A stretch of 64,000 nt of DNA, from assembly GCA_031316315.1 (NCBI GenBank), contig JADBEO010000002.1, positions 62,001 to 126,000 on the forward strand. The letters run 5' to 3'. The notes beneath the pieces are model-generated. The model was not told where the DNA came from and searched no databases. It was given only the letters and a program-made list of their open reading frames with translations. This DNA comes from Chelatococcus sambhunathii (GTDB taxonomy: Bacteria > Pseudomonadota > Alphaproteobacteria > Rhizobiales > Methylopilaceae). The translations under genes were made by a program, and so were the position numbers. Positions 43,711 to 59,800 of the stretch are shown here, in pieces (the first letter of the stretch is position 1; every line of letters begins with the position of its first letter).

Positions 43711-46431
43711 TTGGCCGATCCTACCGATCCGACGTCGGGCGAGCCGTCCGACGTCCGCCTCGTCTCGATCGCCGACGAGATGCGGCGGTCCTATCTCGAC
43801 TACGCGATGTCGGTCATCGTATCGCGCGCGCTCCCGGACGTGCGCGACGGCCTAAAGCCGGTGCATCGACGCATCCTGTTCTCGATGAACGAGAACGGCT
43901 ATTTTCCTGATCGGCCTTACAGAAAGTCGGCCCGCGTGGTCGGCGACGTGATCGGCAAGTACCACCCGCACGGCGACCAGTCGATCTACGACGCGCTGGT
44001 GCGCATGGCGCAGCCGTTTTCGATGCGGCTGATGCTGGCGGACGGGCAGGGCAACTTCGGCTCGGTCGACGGCGATCCGCCGGCGGCGATGCGGTACACC
44101 GAGATCCGGTTGGCGAAGCCCGCGATGTCGCTGCTTGCGAACATTGACGAAGACACGGTCGATTTCCAAGACAACTACGACGGTTCCGAGAGGGAGCCGA
44201 CGGTCCTTCCGGCGCAATTCCCAAACCTGCTCGTCAACGGCGCCGGCGGTATCGCCGTCGGCATGGCGACGAACATCCCGCCGCACAATCTCGGCGAGGT
44301 CATCGACGCCTGCGTGGCGCTGATCGAGAAGCCCGAGATGGAGCTCGACGAGCTCATCGAGATCGTGCCGGGGCCGGATTTCCCGACCGCGGGCCGCATT
44401 CTCGGCCGCTCGGGCATCCGCTCCGCCTATGCGACCGGTCGAGGCTCGGTTGTCATGCGCGCCAAGGTCGAGACGGAAGAGATCCGCAAGGACCGCGAAG
44501 CGCTGATCGTCACCGAAATCCCGTATCAGGTGAACAAGGCCAAGCTCGTCGAGCACATCGCCGACATGGTCCGCGAAAAGCGGATCGAGGGCATTTCGGA
44601 CCTGCGCGACGAGAGCGACCGCCAGGGCATGCGGATCGTCATCGAGCTGAAGCGCGAGGCGGTCGCCGACATCGTGCTGAACCAGCTGTTCCGCTTTTCG
44701 GCGCTTCAGACCAGCTTCGGCTGCAACATGGTTGCGCTGACCGGCGGCAAGCCGGAGCTGATGAACCTTCGCGACATGCTGGTGGCGTTCGTCGCCTTTC
44801 GCGAGGAGGTCGTCAGCCGGCGCACCAAGTTCCGGCTCAACAAGGCGCGCGATCGCGCTCACATCTTGGTCGGCCTCGCCATCGCCGTCGCCAATATCGA
44901 CGAGGTGATCCGGCTGATTCGCACCGCGCCGGACCCGGCGACCGCGCGCGACCGCCTGATGGAGCGCGACTGGCCGGCCCGCGACGTCGAGGCGCTGATC
45001 GCGCTGATCGACGATCCGCGCCACCGCATCAACGAGGACGGCACGTACAAGCTGTCGCTCGAGCAGGCGAGGGCGATCCTCGATCTGCGCCTGCAGCGCC
45101 TGACCGCCCTCGGCCGCGACGAGATCAAGGACGAGCTCGACAAGCTGGCCGCCGAGATCGCGGATTATCTTGAGATTCTCGGCTCCCGCGAGCGCATCCA
45201 GGCGATCGTGCGGCAGGAGCTGCTGGCCGCGAAAGAGCAGTTCGCGACGCCGCGCCGGACCGAGATCCTGGAGTCCGACGCGGACTTCGAGGACGAGGAC
45301 CTTATCCAGCGCGAGGACATGGTCGTCACCTTCACCCATGGCGGCTACATCAAGCGCGTGCCGCTCGCGACATACCGGGCGCAGAACCGCGGCGGCAAGG
45401 GGCGCTCGGGCATGGCGACGCGCGACGAGGACTTCGTCTCGCGCCTGTTCGTCGCGGACACCCATACGCCGGTGCTGTTCTTCTCCTCGCTCGGCCAGGT
45501 CTACAAGCTCAAGGTCTGGAAGCTGCCGCTGTCGGCGCCCCAGGCGCGCGGCAAGGCGCTGATCAACATGCTGCCGCTCGATCCGGGCGAGCGCATCACC
45601 ACGATCATGCCGCTGGCCGAGGACGAAGCCAGCTGGGCCGATTACGACGTGATGTTCTCGACGTCCGGAGGGACCGTGAGGCGCAACAAGCTGTCGGACT
45701 TCGTCAACGTGAACCGCTCCGGCAAGATCGCGATGAAGCTCGACGAGGGCGAGAGCATCGTCGACGTCCAGATCTGCAAGGAGGACGACGACGTCCTGCT
45801 GACGACGTATCGCGGCCAGTGCATCCGCTTCCGCGTGTCGGACGTGCGCGTCTTCAAGGGGCGCGACAGCCAGGGCGTGCGCGGCATCACGCTCGCGGAC
45901 GGCGACCGGGTCATCGCCCTGTCGATCCTGCGCCACTTCGAGGCGAGCCCCGACGAACGCGTCGCCTACCTGAAGCGGGCCAACGCGGTTCGCCGAGGGC
46001 AGGGCGAGAGCGTCGCGGAAGACGCTGCGGCAGACGTCGAATCCGAGGCGGAAGTCGGCTCCGACATCGAACTTGGCGCCGAGCGCTACGCGGCGATGAG
46101 CGAGGCCGAGCAGCTGATCCTGACGCTGTCCGAGAACGGCTATGGCAAGCGGTCCTCGTCCTTCGAGTACCGGGTCACCGGCCGTGGCGGCAAGGGCATC
46201 GTCGCGATGGTCACGAACGACAGAAACGGTCCGCTGGTGGCCTCCTTCGCGGTCGAGCACTCCGACCAGATCGTGCTCGTCACCAACGCCGGTCAGACCA
46301 TCCGCTGCCCTGTGGACAACATCCGCCTGGCGGGTAGGTCGACGCAGGGCGTCATCGTCTTCGACACGGCGGAAGGCGAGCGGGTCGTCTCGGTCGACTA
46401 CATCGGCGAGGTCGAGGAGACAGAGGAATGA
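43711..46431 (+). CDS. gyrA: DNA gyrase subunit A
   Basis: GyrA cuts and reseals DNA in the type II topoisomerase gyrase. The 906-residue protein starts at TTG 43711 with the usual lead [20 protein letters not shown]. It has [20 protein letters not shown], the catalytic Tyr region near [18 protein letters not shown], and the gyrase box QNRGGKG (about residue 560), which separates it from ParC. The C-terminal domain has repeated beta-pinwheel blades and ends in an acidic tail. The quinolone region is [13 protein letters not shown], with Gln where E. coli has Ser83. Downstream is a tRNA-like gene. Confidence 0.97.
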
Positions 46432-46542
46432 CGCCGTCCGGTCCGCGAGCCGCAGGGAAGGTTCGTGAGCGGCGGGTCCGTTAACCTTACTAACTCGGTA
46501 TTGTTGCAGTCCACCGGACCGGCGTGGCAGATTCTGGACGTC

Positions 46543-46617
46543 GGCCCGGTGGGGGAATGGCTACCCAGGGGATGGGAACATCCTCACATCCTGGTTCAAA
46601 TCCAGGCTGGGCCTCCA
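46543..46617 (+). tRNA. tRNA-like gene with an 8-nt anticodon loop (possible unusual or pseudo-tRNA)
   Basis: The 75-base sequence folds like a tRNA: acceptor GGCCCGG/CTGGGCC (six Watson-Crick and one G-U pair), D-arm with GGG/CCC and loop GAATGGCTA, T-stem CCTGG/CCAGG with loop TTCAAAT, discriminator T and an encoded CCA. The anticodon arm GGGGA/TCCTC has a loop of eight bases, TGGGAACA, or six if T573 and A580 pair; canonical tRNAs have seven with U33. T73, the D-loop and the overall shape resemble tRNA-Cys, but no GCA anticodon is present. It is followed by a strong terminator, so it is probably transcribed. It may be a decayed copy or a non-canonical RNA. Confidence 0.55.
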
Positions 46618-46621
46618 AGAT

Positions 46622-46661
46622 AAAAAAGCGGCGCTCCCGGATTTCGGGACGCCGCTTTTTT
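46622..46661 (+). terminator. Strong intrinsic terminator of the tRNA-like gene
   Basis: aaaaaagcggcg and cgccgctttttt form a 12-base stem with an inner tcccg/cggga pair, and the 3' side ends in six T. Such A-tract plus T-tract terminators work in both directions. It lies five bases after the CCA end of the tRNA-like gene, which marks the end of a real transcript. Confidence 0.9.
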
Positions 46662-46732
46662 CTTTGATCTTCAGTCGAACGATCAGTCGCCCGGCCGCGC
46701 CCCACGCGGCCGGGCGTCCTCGCGCGCCTCCG

Positions 46733-47146: not shown

Positions 47147-47644
47147 ATGCCGCGCGTCGCTTTCTACCCGGGCTCGTTCGACCCCGTGACCAACGGACAT
47201 CTCGACGTGGCGGAGCGGGCCTGTCGCCTCGCCGACAAGCTCGTCGTGGCGATCGGCGCGCATCCCGGCAAGACCCCGCTGTTTTCCCTAGAGGAGCGCC
47301 GCGAGATGCTCGACGAGACGCTCGCGCTGGTCGCGCGGAGGGCCCGCGTCGATTTCGAAGCCACCACCTTCGACGGCCTCGTCGTCGACGCGGCCCGCGC
47401 CGCCGGCTCGTCGGTCCTCGTCCGCGGCGTGCGCGACGGCGCCGATTTCGACTATGAGATGCAGATGGCCGGGATGAACGCGGAACTCGCCCCGGGGGTG
47501 ACGACCGTACTGCTGCCGCCGTCCGCCGCAGTCCGCTCGATCAGCGCCACATTTGTCCGTCAAATCGCTGCCATGGGCGGAGACGTCTCCGCCTTCGCGC
47601 CTCCGCCGGTCGTCGAGCGCTTGAACCGGCGGTTTGCCAGATGA
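47147..47644 (+). CDS. coaD: Phosphopantetheine adenylyltransferase
   Basis: CoaD adenylylates 4'-phosphopantetheine, the penultimate step of coenzyme A synthesis. The 165-residue protein begins MPRVAFYPGSFDPVTNGHLD, with the T/HxGH nucleotidyltransferase motif in TNGH. It also has LVRGVRDGADFDYEMQMAGMN and the late PPSAAVRSISATFVRQIAA. Length is normal. The cyclophilin pair follows 55 bases later on the same strand, as in many alphaproteobacteria. Confidence 0.96.
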   Translation: MPRVAFYPGSFDPVTNGHLDVAERACRLADKLVVAIGAHPGKTPLFSLEERREMLDETLALVARRARVDFEATTFDGLVVDAARAAGSSVLVRGVRDGADFDYEMQMAGMNAELAPGVTTVLLPPSAAVRSISATFVRQIAAMGGDVSAFAPPPVVERLNRRFAR

Positions 47645-49266: not shown

Positions 49267-50355
49267 TTGGACGTCTCGCTGTTCGATTTCGACCTTCCGG
49301 AGGAGCTGATCGCGCTGAGGCCCGTCAGCCCGCGCGACAGCGCGCGCCTGCTCGTCGTGCGCCCGGGCTCGGAACGCGAACTCGAGGACCGCACCGTCGC
49401 GGACCTCCCCGAACTGCTCGCGTCTGGAGACGCTCTTGTCGTCAACGCGACGCGCGTCATCCCCGCGCGCCTCTTCGGCCGCCGGAGACGGGGCGAGGCG
49501 GTCGCGCGGATCGAATGCCTGCTGCATCGGCGGCTCGACGGCGCCCGCTGGCGCGTCTTCGCCCGACCCGCCAAGAAGCTCGCGGCGGGAGACCGCGTCA
49601 GCTTCGGCGACGCGCGGGAAGGTCAGGCCTGCCTGCTCGGACGGCTCGACGCAACGGTGGCGGAGCGCGGGGCGGAGGGCGAGGTGACGCTCGCCTTCGA
49701 TCTGTCGGGTCCGGATCTCGACGCGGCGATCGCCGCAGCCGGCGACATCCCCCTGCCGCCCTACATCGCGGGACGCAGGGCGGCCGACGACGCGGACGAG
49801 CGGGACTACCAAACCATGTTCGCACGGGAGCCAGGAGCGGTCGCCGCGCCGACCGCAGGCCTGCATTTCACGCCTGCGCTGTCGCAGGCGCTCGCCGCCC
49901 GCGGCGTCGCGCGCCATGAAACGGTGCTTCATGTCGGCGCCGGCACCTTCCTTCCAGTGAAAGCGGAGGACACGGACGACCACCGCATGCACGCCGAATT
50001 CGGCGTTCTCGACGCCGAAACGGCCGAAGCGCTGAACGAGACCAAGGCCGCTGGCGGGCGCGTCGTCGCGGTGGGAACGACATCAGCCCGGTTGCTCGAG
50101 AGCGCCGTAGCGACGAGCGGGCTCATCGCGGCGTTTTCGGGCGAGACCGACATCTTCATCACTCCGGGCTTTCGGTTCAGGGCCATCGACGCGCTGATGA
50201 CCAATTTCCATCTGCCGCGGTCGACGCTGATGATGCTGATCTCGGCCTTCGCCGGCCTCGACGTGGTGAAGCGCGCCTACGCCCATGCGGTGGAGCAGCG
50301 GTACCGCTTCTACTCCTATGGCGACGCCTGCCTGTTCCTGCCGGAGCGGCGATGA
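49267..50355 (+). CDS. queA: S-adenosylmethionine:tRNA ribosyltransferase-isomerase
   Basis: QueA converts preQ1 in tRNA to epoxyqueuosine using SAM as ribosyl donor. The 362-residue protein, starting at TTG 49267 ([20 protein letters not shown]), has [37 protein letters not shown], the Asp/Glu-containing [21 protein letters not shown] and [19 protein letters not shown]. These match the family at normal length. The next gene is tgt, the preceding pathway step, with a dispersed repeat between. An upstream ATG is absent, so TTG is the best choice. Confidence 0.94.
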
Positions 50356-50372
50356 GCGCGGGACAGGCCAAG

Positions 50373-50490
50373 TGCGTTTTTCGAGACGGCCCTCTCGGGC
50401 CTCCTCAGCATGAGGATCGTCGAGGATGCCAGGCGCAAGCCGCCCTCATGCTGAGGAGCGGCGCGCCAGCGCCGCGTCTCGAAGCACGCA
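50373..50490. repeat. Nested inverted-repeat element between queA and tgt
   Basis: Inner arms ctcctcagcatgag (50402-50415) and ctcatgctgaggag (50446-50459) are perfectly complementary over 14 bases. Outer arms ttcgagacg (50380-50388) and cgtctcgaa (50475-50483) also pair, and tgcgt/acgca at the very ends extend the symmetry. Elements with the ctcatgctgaggag core are widely dispersed in alphaproteobacterial genomes. It ends about 26 bases before the tgt start. Confidence 0.8.
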
Positions 50491-50515
50491 GTTGGCTCAT
50501 GCAGGCTGATCCTTC

Positions 50516-51634
50516 GTGAGCAAGATTCCATTCAACATCTCCGCGGCCGACGGCGCCGCGCGCACGGGTGAGATCGTCTTCCCCCGCGGAGAGATTCGCA
50601 CGCCCGCCTTCATGCCGGTCGGCACCGCGGCGACGGTCAAGGCGCTCACCGTCGACCAGGTCCGCCAGACCGGCGCGGACGTGGTGCTCGGCAACGTCTA
50701 TCACCTGATGCTCCGGCCGGGCGCGGAGCGGGTGGCGGCGCTCGGGGGCTTGCATCACTTCATGCGCTGGCAGCGGCCGATTCTGACCGATTCCGGCGGC
50801 TTCCAGGTCATGTCGCTGGCGGCGCTCAGGAAGCTCGACAATGACGGCGTCACCTTCCAGTCGCACATCGATGGCTCGACCCACCGGCTGACGCCCGAGC
50901 GCTCCGTCGAGATCCAGCGGCTCCTCGGCGCCGACGTCACAATGCAGCTCGACGAATGCGTCCGGCTGCCGGCGTCGCGCGACGAGGTCGAGCGCGCCAT
51001 GCGGCTGTCGCTCGACTGGGCGGAGCGCTCCAAGGCCGCGTTCGGCGACCAGGAGGGCAGGGCGCTGTTCGGCATCGTCCAGGGCGGCGATGTCGCCGAT
51101 CTTCGGCGCGGTTCCGCGCGCGGCCTCGTCGACATTGGCTTCGACGGCTACGCGGTCGGCGGTCTGGCCGTCGGCGAGCCGCAGGACGTGATGCTCGCCA
51201 TGCTCGAGGAGACCGTCCCGGAGCTTCCGGCCGATCGCCCGCGTTATCTCATGGGCGTCGGGACGCCGGACGACATCCTGAAGTCCGTCTCGCGCGGGAT
51301 CGACATGTTCGACTGCGTGATGCCGACGCGCGCCGGTCGGCACGGCCAGGCCTTCACCCGTTTCGGCAAGATCAACCTCAAGAACGCCCGTTTCGCCGAC
51401 GATCCGCGCCCGCTCGACGAGGAGAGCGACTGTCCTGCGGCGCGCGATTATTCGCGCGCCTATCTGCACCACCTCGTGAAGTGCGGAGAAATTCTCGGCA
51501 TGACGCTTTTGAGCTGGAACAACATCTCCTACTACCAGCGGCTCATGGGCGGGGCGCGAGCGGCGATCGCGGAGCGCCGCTTCGCCGCCTACGCCGCGGC
51601 CTGCGTCGAGGGTTGGGCGAAGGGACTGGACTGA
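50516..51634 (+). CDS. tgt: Queuine tRNA-ribosyltransferase
   Basis: TGT exchanges guanine 34 of tRNA for preQ1 in queuosine synthesis. The 372-residue protein starts at GTG 50516. It has the active-site Asp in [13 protein letters not shown], the substrate motif [20 protein letters not shown] and [15 protein letters not shown]. Near the C-terminus it has [19 protein letters not shown], where typical bacterial TGT has the zinc motif CxCxxC: two of the three zinc cysteines are missing (Ser and Ala). I believe the same variant occurs in other rhizobial TGTs, from memory only. It acts in the same pathway as the upstream queA. Confidence 0.93.
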
Positions 51635-56839: not shown

Positions 56840-59800
56840 ATGATCGGCGACATTTCGCGGCGGCAGTTCTTGCGAACTGCGAGCGCGGGCATCGCCGGGA
56901 CGACGCTCGGAGCGATGGGCTTCGGCGGCGCTGAACAGGCTCTGGCCCAGACGGTGCGGCCCTTCAAGCTCGCGAAGACGACGGAGACCCGGAACACCTG
57001 CCCGTATTGTTCGGTGGCCTGCGGCATTCTGATGTATGGCGTCGGCGACGGTTCGGAGAACAACGAGCCGTCGATCATGCACATCGAGGGAGACCCGGAC
57101 CATCCGGTGAACCGCGGCACGCTCTGCCCGAAGGGCGCGGCGCTGCTCGACTTCGTGCATTCGGAGACGCGCCTCAAGTACCCGATGCACCGCAAGCCCG
57201 GCTCCGACAAGTTCGAGCGCGTGACGTGGGACTTCGCCCTCGACCGCATCGCGCGCCTGATGAAGGACGACCGCGACAAGAACTTCGTCGCGCAGAACAA
57301 GGAAGGGGTGACGGTCAACCGCTGGACGACGACGGGCTTCCTCGCCGCCTCCGCGACGACCAACGAAACGGCGACGCTGACCTGGAAGGTCGTGCGCTCG
57401 ACCGGCATGGTGGTGTTCGACAACCAGGCTCGCGTTTGACACGGACCGACGGTGGCCAGTCTGGCCCCAACATTCGGTCGCGGCGCGATGACCAACTCCT
57501 GGGGCGACATCGCCTCGACCGACCTCGTCGTCGTCATGGGCGGCAACGCGGCTGAGGCGCATCCCTGCGGCTTCAAATGGGTCGTCAAGGCCAAGGAGAA
57601 CCGCGGCGCCAAACTCATCGTGGTCGACCCGCGCTACACCCGCACGGCCTCGGTCGCTGATTACTACTGCCCGATCCGGCCCGGCACCGACATCGCCTTC
57701 CTCGGCGGCGTGATCAACTACCTCTTGTCGAACGACAAGATCCAGCACGAGTACGTCAAGGCCTACACCAACGTCGGCTTCCTCGTGAAACCGGAGTTCG
57801 GTTTCAAGGACGGCCTGTTCGTCGGCTACGATGAGGCCAAGCGCGGCTACGATATGTCCAACTGGGAGTACCAGATGGGCGACGACGGCTTCGCGAAGGT
57901 TGACGACACGCTGCAGGATCCGAACTGCGTCTTCCAGCTGATGAAGAAGCACTTCGCGATCTACACGCCGGAGCTGGTCGAGAAGATCTGCGGCTCGCCA
58001 AAGGACAAGTTCCTGAAGGTCGCCGAAATGATCTCGACGTGCTCGACGCCGACGAAGACCATGACGTCGATGTACGCGCTCGGCTGGACCCAGCACTCGA
58101 AGGGCTCGCAGAACATCCGCTGCATGGCGATGATCCAGCTGCTGCTGGGCAACATCGGCGTGCGCGGCGGCGGCATGAACGCGCTGCGCGGGCACTCCAA
58201 CATCCAGGGGCTCACCGACCTCGGCCTGATGTCCAACCTGATCCCCGGCTATCTCACGATGCCGACGGAGAAGGAGCCGGACTTCAACGCCTACATGTCG
58301 ACCCGCGGCTTCAAGCCGTTGCGGCCGAACCAGATGAGCTATTGGCAGAACTACAAGAAGTTCTTCGTCTCGTTCACCAAATCCATGTGGGGCGCGGCGG
58401 CGACGGCGGAGAACAACTGGAACTACGACTGGCTTCCGAAGCTCGACGTTACCTACGACATCCTGCGCGCCTTCGACCTCATGGCGCAGGGCAAGATGAC
58501 CGGCTACTTCTGCCAGGGCTTCAACCCGCTGATGACCTTCCCCAACAGGGGCAAGCTCACGGAGGGCCTGTCGAAGCTCAAGTTCCTCGTCACGATGGAC
58601 CCGCTCGACACGGAGACGTCGCGCTTCTGGCAGAACCACGGCGAGTTCAACGACGTGAAGACGTCGGAGATCCAGACCGAGGTGTTCCAGCTGCCGACGA
58701 GCTGCTTCGCGGAAGACGAGGGCTCCCTCGTCAATTCCGGGCGCTGGCTGCAGTGGCACTATCCGGGGCAGAAGCCGCCGGGCGAGGCCAAGCTCGACAC
58801 CTGGATCATGGCCCAGATCTGGCTCCGGCTGAAGAAGCTCTACGAGGCTGAGGGCGGCGCCTTCCCCGACCCGATCATCAAGCTGAACTGGCCCTACGCC
58901 AATCCCGAGGACCCGACCCCTCAGGAACTTGCCAAGGAGATGAACGGCTCGGCCCTTTCGGACGTGTTCGATCCGAAGGACGCGACCAAGGTCATCGTCC
59001 AGAAGGGCAAGCAGCTCGACGGCTTCGCGCAGATGCGCGACGACGGCTCTACGCAGGGCTTCTGCTGGATCTACGCCGGCTGCTGGACCGAGGCGGGCAA
59101 CAACATGGCCCGCCGTGACAAGAGCGATCCGGAGGACGCCGGCCTTGCGCCCAAATGGGCGTGGTCGTGGCCGGCCAACCGCCGCATCCTCTACAACCGC
59201 GCCTCGTCGGACCCGTCGGGCAAGCCGTGGGACGACACCCGCAAACTTGTCTGGTGGAACGGCGAGAAGTGGGGCGGCCTCGACGTGCCGGACTACAGCC
59301 CGACCTTCAAGCCGCAGGACGCGATCGGCCCCTTCATCATGAACCCGGAGGGCGTCGCGCGGTTCTTCTCCCGCAAGATGATGCGGGACGGGCCGTTCCC
59401 GACGCACTACGAGCCGTTCGAGTCCCCGGTCGCCAACGCGGTCGCGCCGAAGATCCGCGGCAATCCCGCCGCGCGCATCTTCAAGGGCGACTTCGCGGCG
59501 CTCGGCTCCAGCGACAAGTATCCCTATGTCGGGACGAGCTACCGCCTGACCGAGCACTTCCACCAGTGGACCAAGCACGTCTGGGTCAACGCGGCGCTGC
59601 AGCCGGAATTCTTCGTCGAGATTTCGGAAGAGCTCGCGAAGGAGAAGGGCATCGCCAAGGGCGGCTGGGTGCGCGTCTGGTCCAACCGGGGCTCGATCAA
59701 GGCCAAGGCGGTGGTCACCAAGCGCATCAAGCCGCTGATGGTCGACGGCAAGGCGACCCACGTCGTCGGCATTCCGCAGCACTGGGGATTCATGGGCGCG

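What the first reader, a model, noticed from the sequence alone, without database searches (positions are those of the whole stretch)
46543..46661. tRNA-like RNA with an 8-nt anticodon loop and its own terminator, after gyrA
A 75-base sequence keeps a 7-bp acceptor stem, D-arm, T-arm, discriminator T and an encoded CCA, and is followed by an A-tract/T-tract terminator. The anticodon loop TGGGAACA has eight (or six) bases and no clear U33, unlike any standard elongator. The overall shape is nearest tRNA-Cys, with no GCA anticodon. It could be a decaying tRNA, a frameshift-decoding tRNA, or a tRNA-like regulatory or decoy RNA. Intact acceptor and T-arm argue against simple decay.
Basis: partly seen in the sequence, partly recalled or inferred. 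Interest (0 to 1): 0.72.

Follow-up and report, generated by a model that had tools for sequence, protein, structure and literature searches.

The report
tRNA-Cys relative with no anticodon
A small RNA gene that still looks like a cysteine tRNA, but whose codon-reading loop has been replaced by a tight hairpin cap, is present in every searched genome of one bacterial genus and has odd-looped relatives in other families of the same order, which suggests that it does a job outside codon reading.

Summary
The 75-nt tRNA-like gene (46543-46617) is real. It lies between gyrA and coaD, with a conserved -35-like TTG upstream and a terminator hairpin downstream. It is present in 13 of 13 genomes searched in its genus (titles: Methylopila, Hansschlegelia, Chenggangzhangella). 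Mean identity is 88%, against 39-48% for its flanks. It descends from tRNA-Cys, whose ordinary GCA copy is elsewhere in the genome. The odd loop is best read as a 7-bp helix, with compensating changes, capped by a GGAA (GNRA) tetraloop; no anticodon is left. Acceptor pairing, U73 and CCA are kept. Homologues with shortened, mostly 6-nt, loops, often on lengthened stems, occur in other Hyphomicrobiales families; in one large family the pattern hit 116 of 248 genomes (at least one hit is chance). Most of those keep GCA in the loop; the window's genus has lost it. The same pattern found none of this kind in 285 genomes of other alphaproteobacterial orders. Each of 38 genomes tested has one CysRS. 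Decay and frameshift decoding fit poorly. The best reading is a non-decoding tRNA-Cys paralogue kept for an extra-ribosomal role, perhaps as cysteine acceptor. Transcription, charging and role are inferred.

The parts
46504..46506 (+). -35-like TTG, 39 nt upstream of the tRNA-like 5' end
   Evidence: TTG at -36 to -39 in 13 of 13 genus members; best TTG window in 200 mononucleotide shuffles reached at most 6. The sigma-70 consensus scan found no site.
46543..46617 (+). tRNA-like gene, 75 nt, tRNA-Cys paralogue
   Evidence: ARAGORN; present in 13 of 13 genus genomes
46543..46549 (+). acceptor stem 5' strand GGCCCGG, pairs with 46607-46613
   Evidence: 7 pairs kept in 12 of 12 distinct rows
46552..46566 (+). 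D-arm: 3-bp stem GGG/CCC, loop GAATGGCTA with G18 G19
46568..46585 (+). rebuilt anticodon arm: 7-bp stem GGGGATG/CATCCTC
   Evidence: 5 of 7 pairs show changes on both sides, 98.8% of cells paired; fold
46575..46578 (+). GGAA tetraloop in place of the anticodon; hexamer GGGAAC at 46574-46579
   Evidence: GGGAAC identical in 13 of 13 genus members
46590..46606 (+). T-arm CCTGG TTCAAAT CCAGG
46607..46613 (+). acceptor stem 3' strand CTGGGCC
46614..46617 (+). discriminator T73 and encoded CCA
   Evidence: invariant in 14 of 14 rows
46623..46666 (+). intrinsic-terminator hairpin and T-tail
   Evidence: comparable hairpin in 10 of 13 genus members
43711..46431 (+). gyrA, upstream neighbour
   Evidence: NCBIfam NF004043 and TIGR01063 over cut-off
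47147..47644 (+). coaD, downstream neighbour
   Evidence: NCBIfam TIGR01510 over cut-off

Best explanation
It is a paralogue of tRNA-Cys that has given up codon reading. Its anticodon arm became a 7-bp hairpin capped by a GGAA tetraloop, while the parts seen by tRNA maturation enzymes and by the acceptor-end contacts of CysRS (U73, G2-C71, C3-G70, CCA, D/T elbow) stayed fixed in this genus. Shown: similarity to tRNA-Cys, conservation, compensatory changes, absence of an anticodon in the whole genus. Inferred: it is transcribed from its own promoter, trimmed and folded as a tRNA, and used outside codon-anticodon reading. The most likely use is as a cysteine-accepting RNA served by the single CysRS, for a non-ribosomal acceptor or as a bound regulator of CysRS. 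The charging step is the weakest link, because the GCA anticodon, a major CysRS determinant, is gone in this genus.
For: Present in 13 of 13 genus genomes at 88% mean identity (minimum 79%) against 39-48% for flanking blocks. Anticodon-arm helix: 5 of 7 pairs with both-side changes, 98.8% of cells paired; whole structure 6 double-change pairs against 2.3 in shuffles, 0 of 500 reaching it. GGGAAC invariant in 13 of 13 while its stem varies. TTG at -36 to -39 in 13 of 13; terminator in 10 of 13. Ordinary tRNA-Cys(GCA) elsewhere in the genome. Homologues with aberrant anticodon arms in f1 g3, f35, f29, f14, f52 and f6. One CysRS over cut-off in 38 of 38 genomes. PMC9976931 (passages read) lists U73, G2-C71, C3-G70 and GCA as bacterial Cys determinants and says U73 alone confers cysteine identity on minihelices.
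Against: No transcript or charging data. The window's genus lacks GCA. Of the 39 paralogues compared, pair 2-71 is A-U in 6 and G-U in 2 rather than G-C. Two families that use aminoacyl-tRNA outside the ribosome, PF14028 and PF16715, gave 0 of 29 genomes each, though the 14 control genomes were silent too. No partner gene shared by the families was found. Positions 15:48 do not form the usual pair in the four f29 rows and in one of four g3 rows. No sigma-70 consensus promoter. A terminator-like hairpin beside only 3 of 21 relatives outside the genus.
Confidence: 0.5

Rival explanations
1. Uncharged regulatory or decoy RNA: the tRNA fold is a stable scaffold that binds a tRNA enzyme (CysRS, RNase P, TruB, CCA enzyme) or pairs through the GGGAAC loop with a target.
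For: Loop invariant in 13 of 13 while its stem varies; GCA lost, which should weaken charging; PMC3399842 (abstract and passages read) describes Bacillus cereus tRNA-Other as poorly charged, not on polysomes and probably part of a regulatory RNA.
Against: Acceptor pairing, U73 and CCA are constant in the genus, more than a pure scaffold needs; loops differ between families, so no shared target sequence.
Confidence: 0.27
2. Still a working elongator tRNA-Cys with an unusual arm; the odd loop is tolerated.
For: GCA lies in or next to the loop in 95 of 102 family-f35 sequences examined, often preceded by T; 3 of those 102 have the canonical arm.
Against: The window's genus has no GCA and no U33 in 13 of 13; G754, G774, G792 and G805 of f35 show no GCA in the loop; an ordinary tRNA-Cys exists.
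Confidence: 0.1
3. Decaying duplicate of tRNA-Cys.
For: The anticodon and, in f35 and others, one of the two D-loop Gs have been lost; distribution is patchy.
Against: 88% against about 40-48% flank identity, compensatory stem changes, intact acceptor, T-arm and CCA in the genus, promoter-like spacing in 13 of 13.
Confidence: 0.07
4. Frameshift-decoding tRNA with a four-base GGAA anticodon.
For: ARAGORN labels 12 of 13 genus copies ggaa and the other Pro(ggg).
Against: Position 33 is G, the loop closes to a tetraloop by covarying pairs, and relatives mostly have 6-nt loops of other sequence.
Confidence: 0.03

Closest known systems
tRNA-Cys(GCA), the ordinary elongator
   Same: D-arm start, U73, G2-C71, C3-G70, CCA, T-arm layout
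   Different: no GCA, no U33, 7-bp stem with tetraloop in place of 5 bp and seven bases
selC* tRNA-Cys (PMC7609411, passages and section 6 read)
   Same: tRNA-Cys derivative with U73, changed architecture and a longer anticodon stem; the four g3 relatives are drawn by ARAGORN with an eighth acceptor pair
   Different: 7/5 acceptor/T-stem and four-base variable region in the window, no UCA or GCA, no second CysRS over cut-off in 38 of 38 genomes
Bacillus cereus tRNA-Other pseudo-tRNA (PMC3399842, abstract and passages read)
   Same: tRNA-like RNA outside the codon set, suggested extra-translational role
   Different: tRNA-Other has a Trp anticodon and flanks a pathogenicity island; this one has no anticodon and sits between housekeeping genes
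Staphylococcus tRNA-Gly(UCC) of pentaglycine bridge synthesis (passage in PMC8007984)
   Same: a tRNA paralogue diverted from translation
   Different: that tRNA keeps its anticodon and deviates in the D and T loops; its pathway is known
tmRNA tRNA-like domain (recalled)
   Same: acceptor/T half without an anticodon loop
   Different: no mRNA-like part; C3-G70 and U73 instead of the alanine G3-U70 (recalled for tmRNA)

Membership tests
elongator tRNA-Cys | seven-base loop with U33 and GCA | tested here: not met
   GGGAAC hexamer in 13 of 13; GGAA tetraloop on 7-8 bp in 10 of 10 representative rows
elongator tRNA-Cys | U73, G2-C71, C3-G70 | tested here: met
   14 of 14 rows of the first alignment
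elongator tRNA-Cys | charging with cysteine | not testable with these tools
   needs an aminoacylation assay
selC* tRNA-Cys | 8/4 acceptor/T-stem with A51a bulge and long variable arm | tested here: not met
   7/5 and a four-base variable region in the window
selC* tRNA-Cys | partner genes selB* and cysS* (reported for some delta-proteobacteria) | tested here: inconclusive
   one CysRS over cut-off in 38 of 38 genomes; selB* not searched
frameshift tRNA | eight-base loop with U33 and a four-base anticodon | tested here: not met
   G33; loop closes by covarying pairs
tRNA pseudogene | relaxed constraint, broken stems | tested here: not met
mascRNA-menRNA (RF01684) | score over the gathering threshold | tested here: not met
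   22.1 bits against 42.5
Rfam tRNA RF00005 | reported by the covariance model | tested here: inconclusive
   not reported, but one search also missed an ordinary tRNA-Leu

The most novel reading that the evidence does not exclude
A family of tRNA-Cys-derived RNAs across several families of Hyphomicrobiales that is dedicated to a cysteine-dependent reaction outside the ribosome: freed from codon reading, its anticodon arm drifted into short loops on longer stems and finally, in the Methylopila group, into a GNRA tetraloop, while the CysRS acceptor determinants stayed under selection.
Probability: 0.28. Interest if true: 0.85.

Novelty: new variant of a known kind. Interest (0 to 1): 0.62.

Why it matters
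Non-decoding tRNAs kept for other jobs are known from few bacteria (recalled, and see PMC8007984 and PMC3399842 passages). Here a set of related genes in one order shows intermediates: an ordinary loop, a short loop that keeps GCA, and no anticodon at all. That makes it testable whether CysRS can do without its anticodon contact and what pathway uses the RNA. Such genes are easily labelled as tRNA of undetermined type or as a second tRNA-Cys, as ARAGORN does here.

Tried and rejected
Phage origin: the viral-contig scan gave 37 stretches; 32 are ordinary tRNA-Leu, 3 ordinary tRNA-Cys and 2 gave no tRNA.

A dedicated second CysRS: one over cut-off in each of 38 genomes (8 of the 13 genus genomes among them); weaker hits are 25-43 bits.

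PEARL-type (PF14028) and cyclodipeptide synthase (PF16715) partners: 0 of 29 each, but the 14 control genomes were silent too, so this is weak.

A shared neighbour: carB and greA near the RNA in 4 of 4 g3 loci, carB in 8 of 8 f35 loci held; lepA 0.1 and 1.2 kb away in the two f29 g66 loci and 3-6 kb away in three f23 loci; gyrA with coaD in 10 of 13 genus loci; single links between the exceptional genus member G008 (L068) and f29 g66 or f35, and between f23 and f29 g31; no single partner.

Counting relatives with the covariance model: it rings in 356 of 397 genomes of the order, mostly through ordinary tRNA-Cys where sequences were read, and its match list is cut, so no count was taken from it.

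Wider class: 285 genomes outside the order gave two pattern matches, neither of this kind (G646 is an odd tRNA; G530 was judged from its matched letters only). Only the pattern, not the model, was searched there.

Literature: ten searches. Of the papers listed, none describes this family as far as title and start of abstract show; one search listed 15 of 53, none. Most subscription papers are not held. PMC3927601 (passages and section 8) notes a divergent trnC-GCA between two Bradyrhizobium japonicum strains; whether it is this gene could not be told. PMC9897764 was read in passages.

The tree rests on about 80 columns and is only suggestive.

Full report
What is there. The window holds a 75-nt tRNA-like gene at 46543-46617 between gyrA (ends 46431) and coaD (starts 47147). 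The cloverleaf has a 7-bp acceptor stem, 3-bp D-stem with G18 G19, 5-bp T-stem with TTCAAAT, T73 and encoded CCA. A terminator hairpin follows at 46623-46660 (not listed by the tool scan). Thirty-nine bases upstream is a TTG; 13 of 13 genus members have TTG at -36 to -39, against at most 6 in 200 mononucleotide shuffles, although the sigma-70 consensus scan finds nothing.

Conservation. A DNA search of 41 genomes found it at high similarity in 13 of 13 genomes of the genus, own genome included, and weakly (E 6.6e-5) in one of four g3 genomes. Record titles name Methylopila, Hansschlegelia and Chenggangzhangella. The RNA averages 88% pairwise identity (minimum 79%), whereas the 75-base flanking blocks average 39-48%. 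gyrA and coaD both lie beside it in 10 of the 13; two have gyrA without coaD in the stretch held and one has coaD without gyrA.

The loop. The hexamer GGGAAC is identical in 13 of 13 while the stem around it changes by compensation: of 7 pairs in the arm none is invariant and 5 show changes on both sides; 98.8% of cells pair (12 distinct rows, one of them g3). In 10 of 10 representative genus rows contiguous pairing reaches 7-8 bp with the tetraloop GGAA, which is also the minimum-energy fold. GGAA is of the GNRA type (recalled). So the '8-nt loop' is better read as a capped hairpin that presents no anticodon.

Origin. The next best hit of the first covariance model in the own genome is an ordinary tRNA-Cys(GCA) of 74 nt. 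The two share layout, G1-C72, G2-C71, C3-G70, C4-G69 and U73. In a comparison set of 39 paralogues and 21 ordinary tRNA-Cys, C3-G70 is kept in 59 of 60; pair 2-71 is G-C in 52, A-U in 6 and G-U in 2; U73 is 60 of 60, but the paralogues had been chosen by a filter that required it. At the candidate loci printed without that filter every Cys-like tRNA ended in TCCA; at one locus (L233) ARAGORN found no tRNA. Positions 15:48 are A-U in 10 of 10 genus rows and 8 of 8 f35 rows and G-C in 3 of 4 g3 rows; the fourth g3 row is G-U and the four f29 rows break the pattern.

Relatives. A strict pattern matched 18 of 397 genomes of the order. A looser one matched 66 of 397; read one by one, 36 are of this kind and 30 are other tRNAs or chance: 17 of 18 in family f1 (13 of 13 in g1, 4 of 4 in g3, 0 of 1 in g2), 16 of 18 in f35, 2 of 11 in f29 (both g66 genomes) and 1 of 3 in f52. 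The second model, run on 34 chosen genomes, added odd-loop copies in four f29 g31 genomes, one f14 and one f6 genome, and second tRNA-Cys genes with a seven-base loop in f23, f24, f11, f36, f6 and f2. Loops in these relatives are mostly 6 nt on stems of 5-7 bp; the f52 form has 5 nt, or 7 nt without U33. In f35 the pattern matched 116 of 248 genomes and 22 of 47 genera; at least one of these is a chance match (G734). Among 102 of the 129 stretches the longest helix leaves a loop of 6 nt in 52, 7 in 16, 4 in 15, 5 in 9, 8 in 7 and 9 in 3; GCA lies in or next to the loop in 95; the canonical five-pair, seven-base, U33-GCA arm occurs in 3. The pattern excludes the ordinary length by design, so these are not unbiased rates. 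G754, G774, G792 and G805 show no GCA in the loop. Among 285 genomes of other orders the pattern found none of this kind.

Neighbourhood. The four g3 copies follow carB-greA; the eight f35 copies examined lie between a methyltransferase gene and carB; the two f29 g66 copies lie 0.1 and 1.2 kb from lepA. No partner gene is common to the families.

Mechanism. Shown: similarity to tRNA-Cys, conservation, covariation, loss of the anticodon. Inferred: transcription, maturation, lack of decoding. The constant part in the genus is the acceptor/T half with U73 and CCA; PMC9976931 (passages) lists U73, G2-C71, C3-G70 together with GCA as Cys determinants in bacteria and says U73 alone suffices on minihelices. 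Each of 38 genomes has one CysRS over cut-off, so if the RNA is charged, the ordinary enzyme is the candidate. I therefore favour an extra-ribosomal RNA, as cysteine acceptor or CysRS-bound RNA, with a scaffold or decoy role as main rival. No downstream user was identified; PF14028 and PF16715 gave 0 of 29 genomes each, with silent controls.

Place among known things. It would work outside the codon set like tRNA-Other of Bacillus cereus (PMC3399842, abstract and passages) or the Staphylococcus tRNA-Gly (passage in PMC8007984), but its features match neither. It shares U73, tRNA-Cys descent and a longer anticodon stem with selC* tRNA-Cys (PMC7609411, passages and section 6) but fails that family's 8/4 structure. 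I rate it a new variant of a known kind.

Noticed in passing
window 57434-57492 +: Rfam SECIS_3 (RF01989) match, 83.6 bits over the 63-bit cut-off: the organism probably uses selenocysteine near this point.
   Followed up: no
L229-L232 (family f24, four genomes): Second tRNA-Cys with a seven-base loop CGGCAAA: GCA kept but G instead of U at position 33.
   Followed up: partly
L228, L234, L236-L238, L241 (families f6, f11, f23): Second tRNA-Cys-like copies whose D-loop lacks the usual GG.
   Followed up: partly
G740, G795, G856, G864, G871 (family f35, genus g138): Two (three in G795) Cys-like copies without the canonical loop per genome.
   Followed up: no
L197 (G646, another order): Cys-like tRNA with loop CUCGCAA that ARAGORN calls tRNA-Ala(cgc).
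   Followed up: no
L068 4631-5254 and L189 4409-5038, L190 11579-12004: Similar genes (they look like a cobalamin-pathway gene, recalled) lie within some kilobases of the RNA in genus member G008 and in f29 g66.
   Followed up: no
window 49267-51631 +: queA and tgt (queuosine genes) lie downstream of coaD.
   Followed up: no
own genome G000:C39:15715-15807: 93-nt weak tRNA match (26.3 bits, below cut-off), possibly the selenocysteine tRNA.
   Followed up: no
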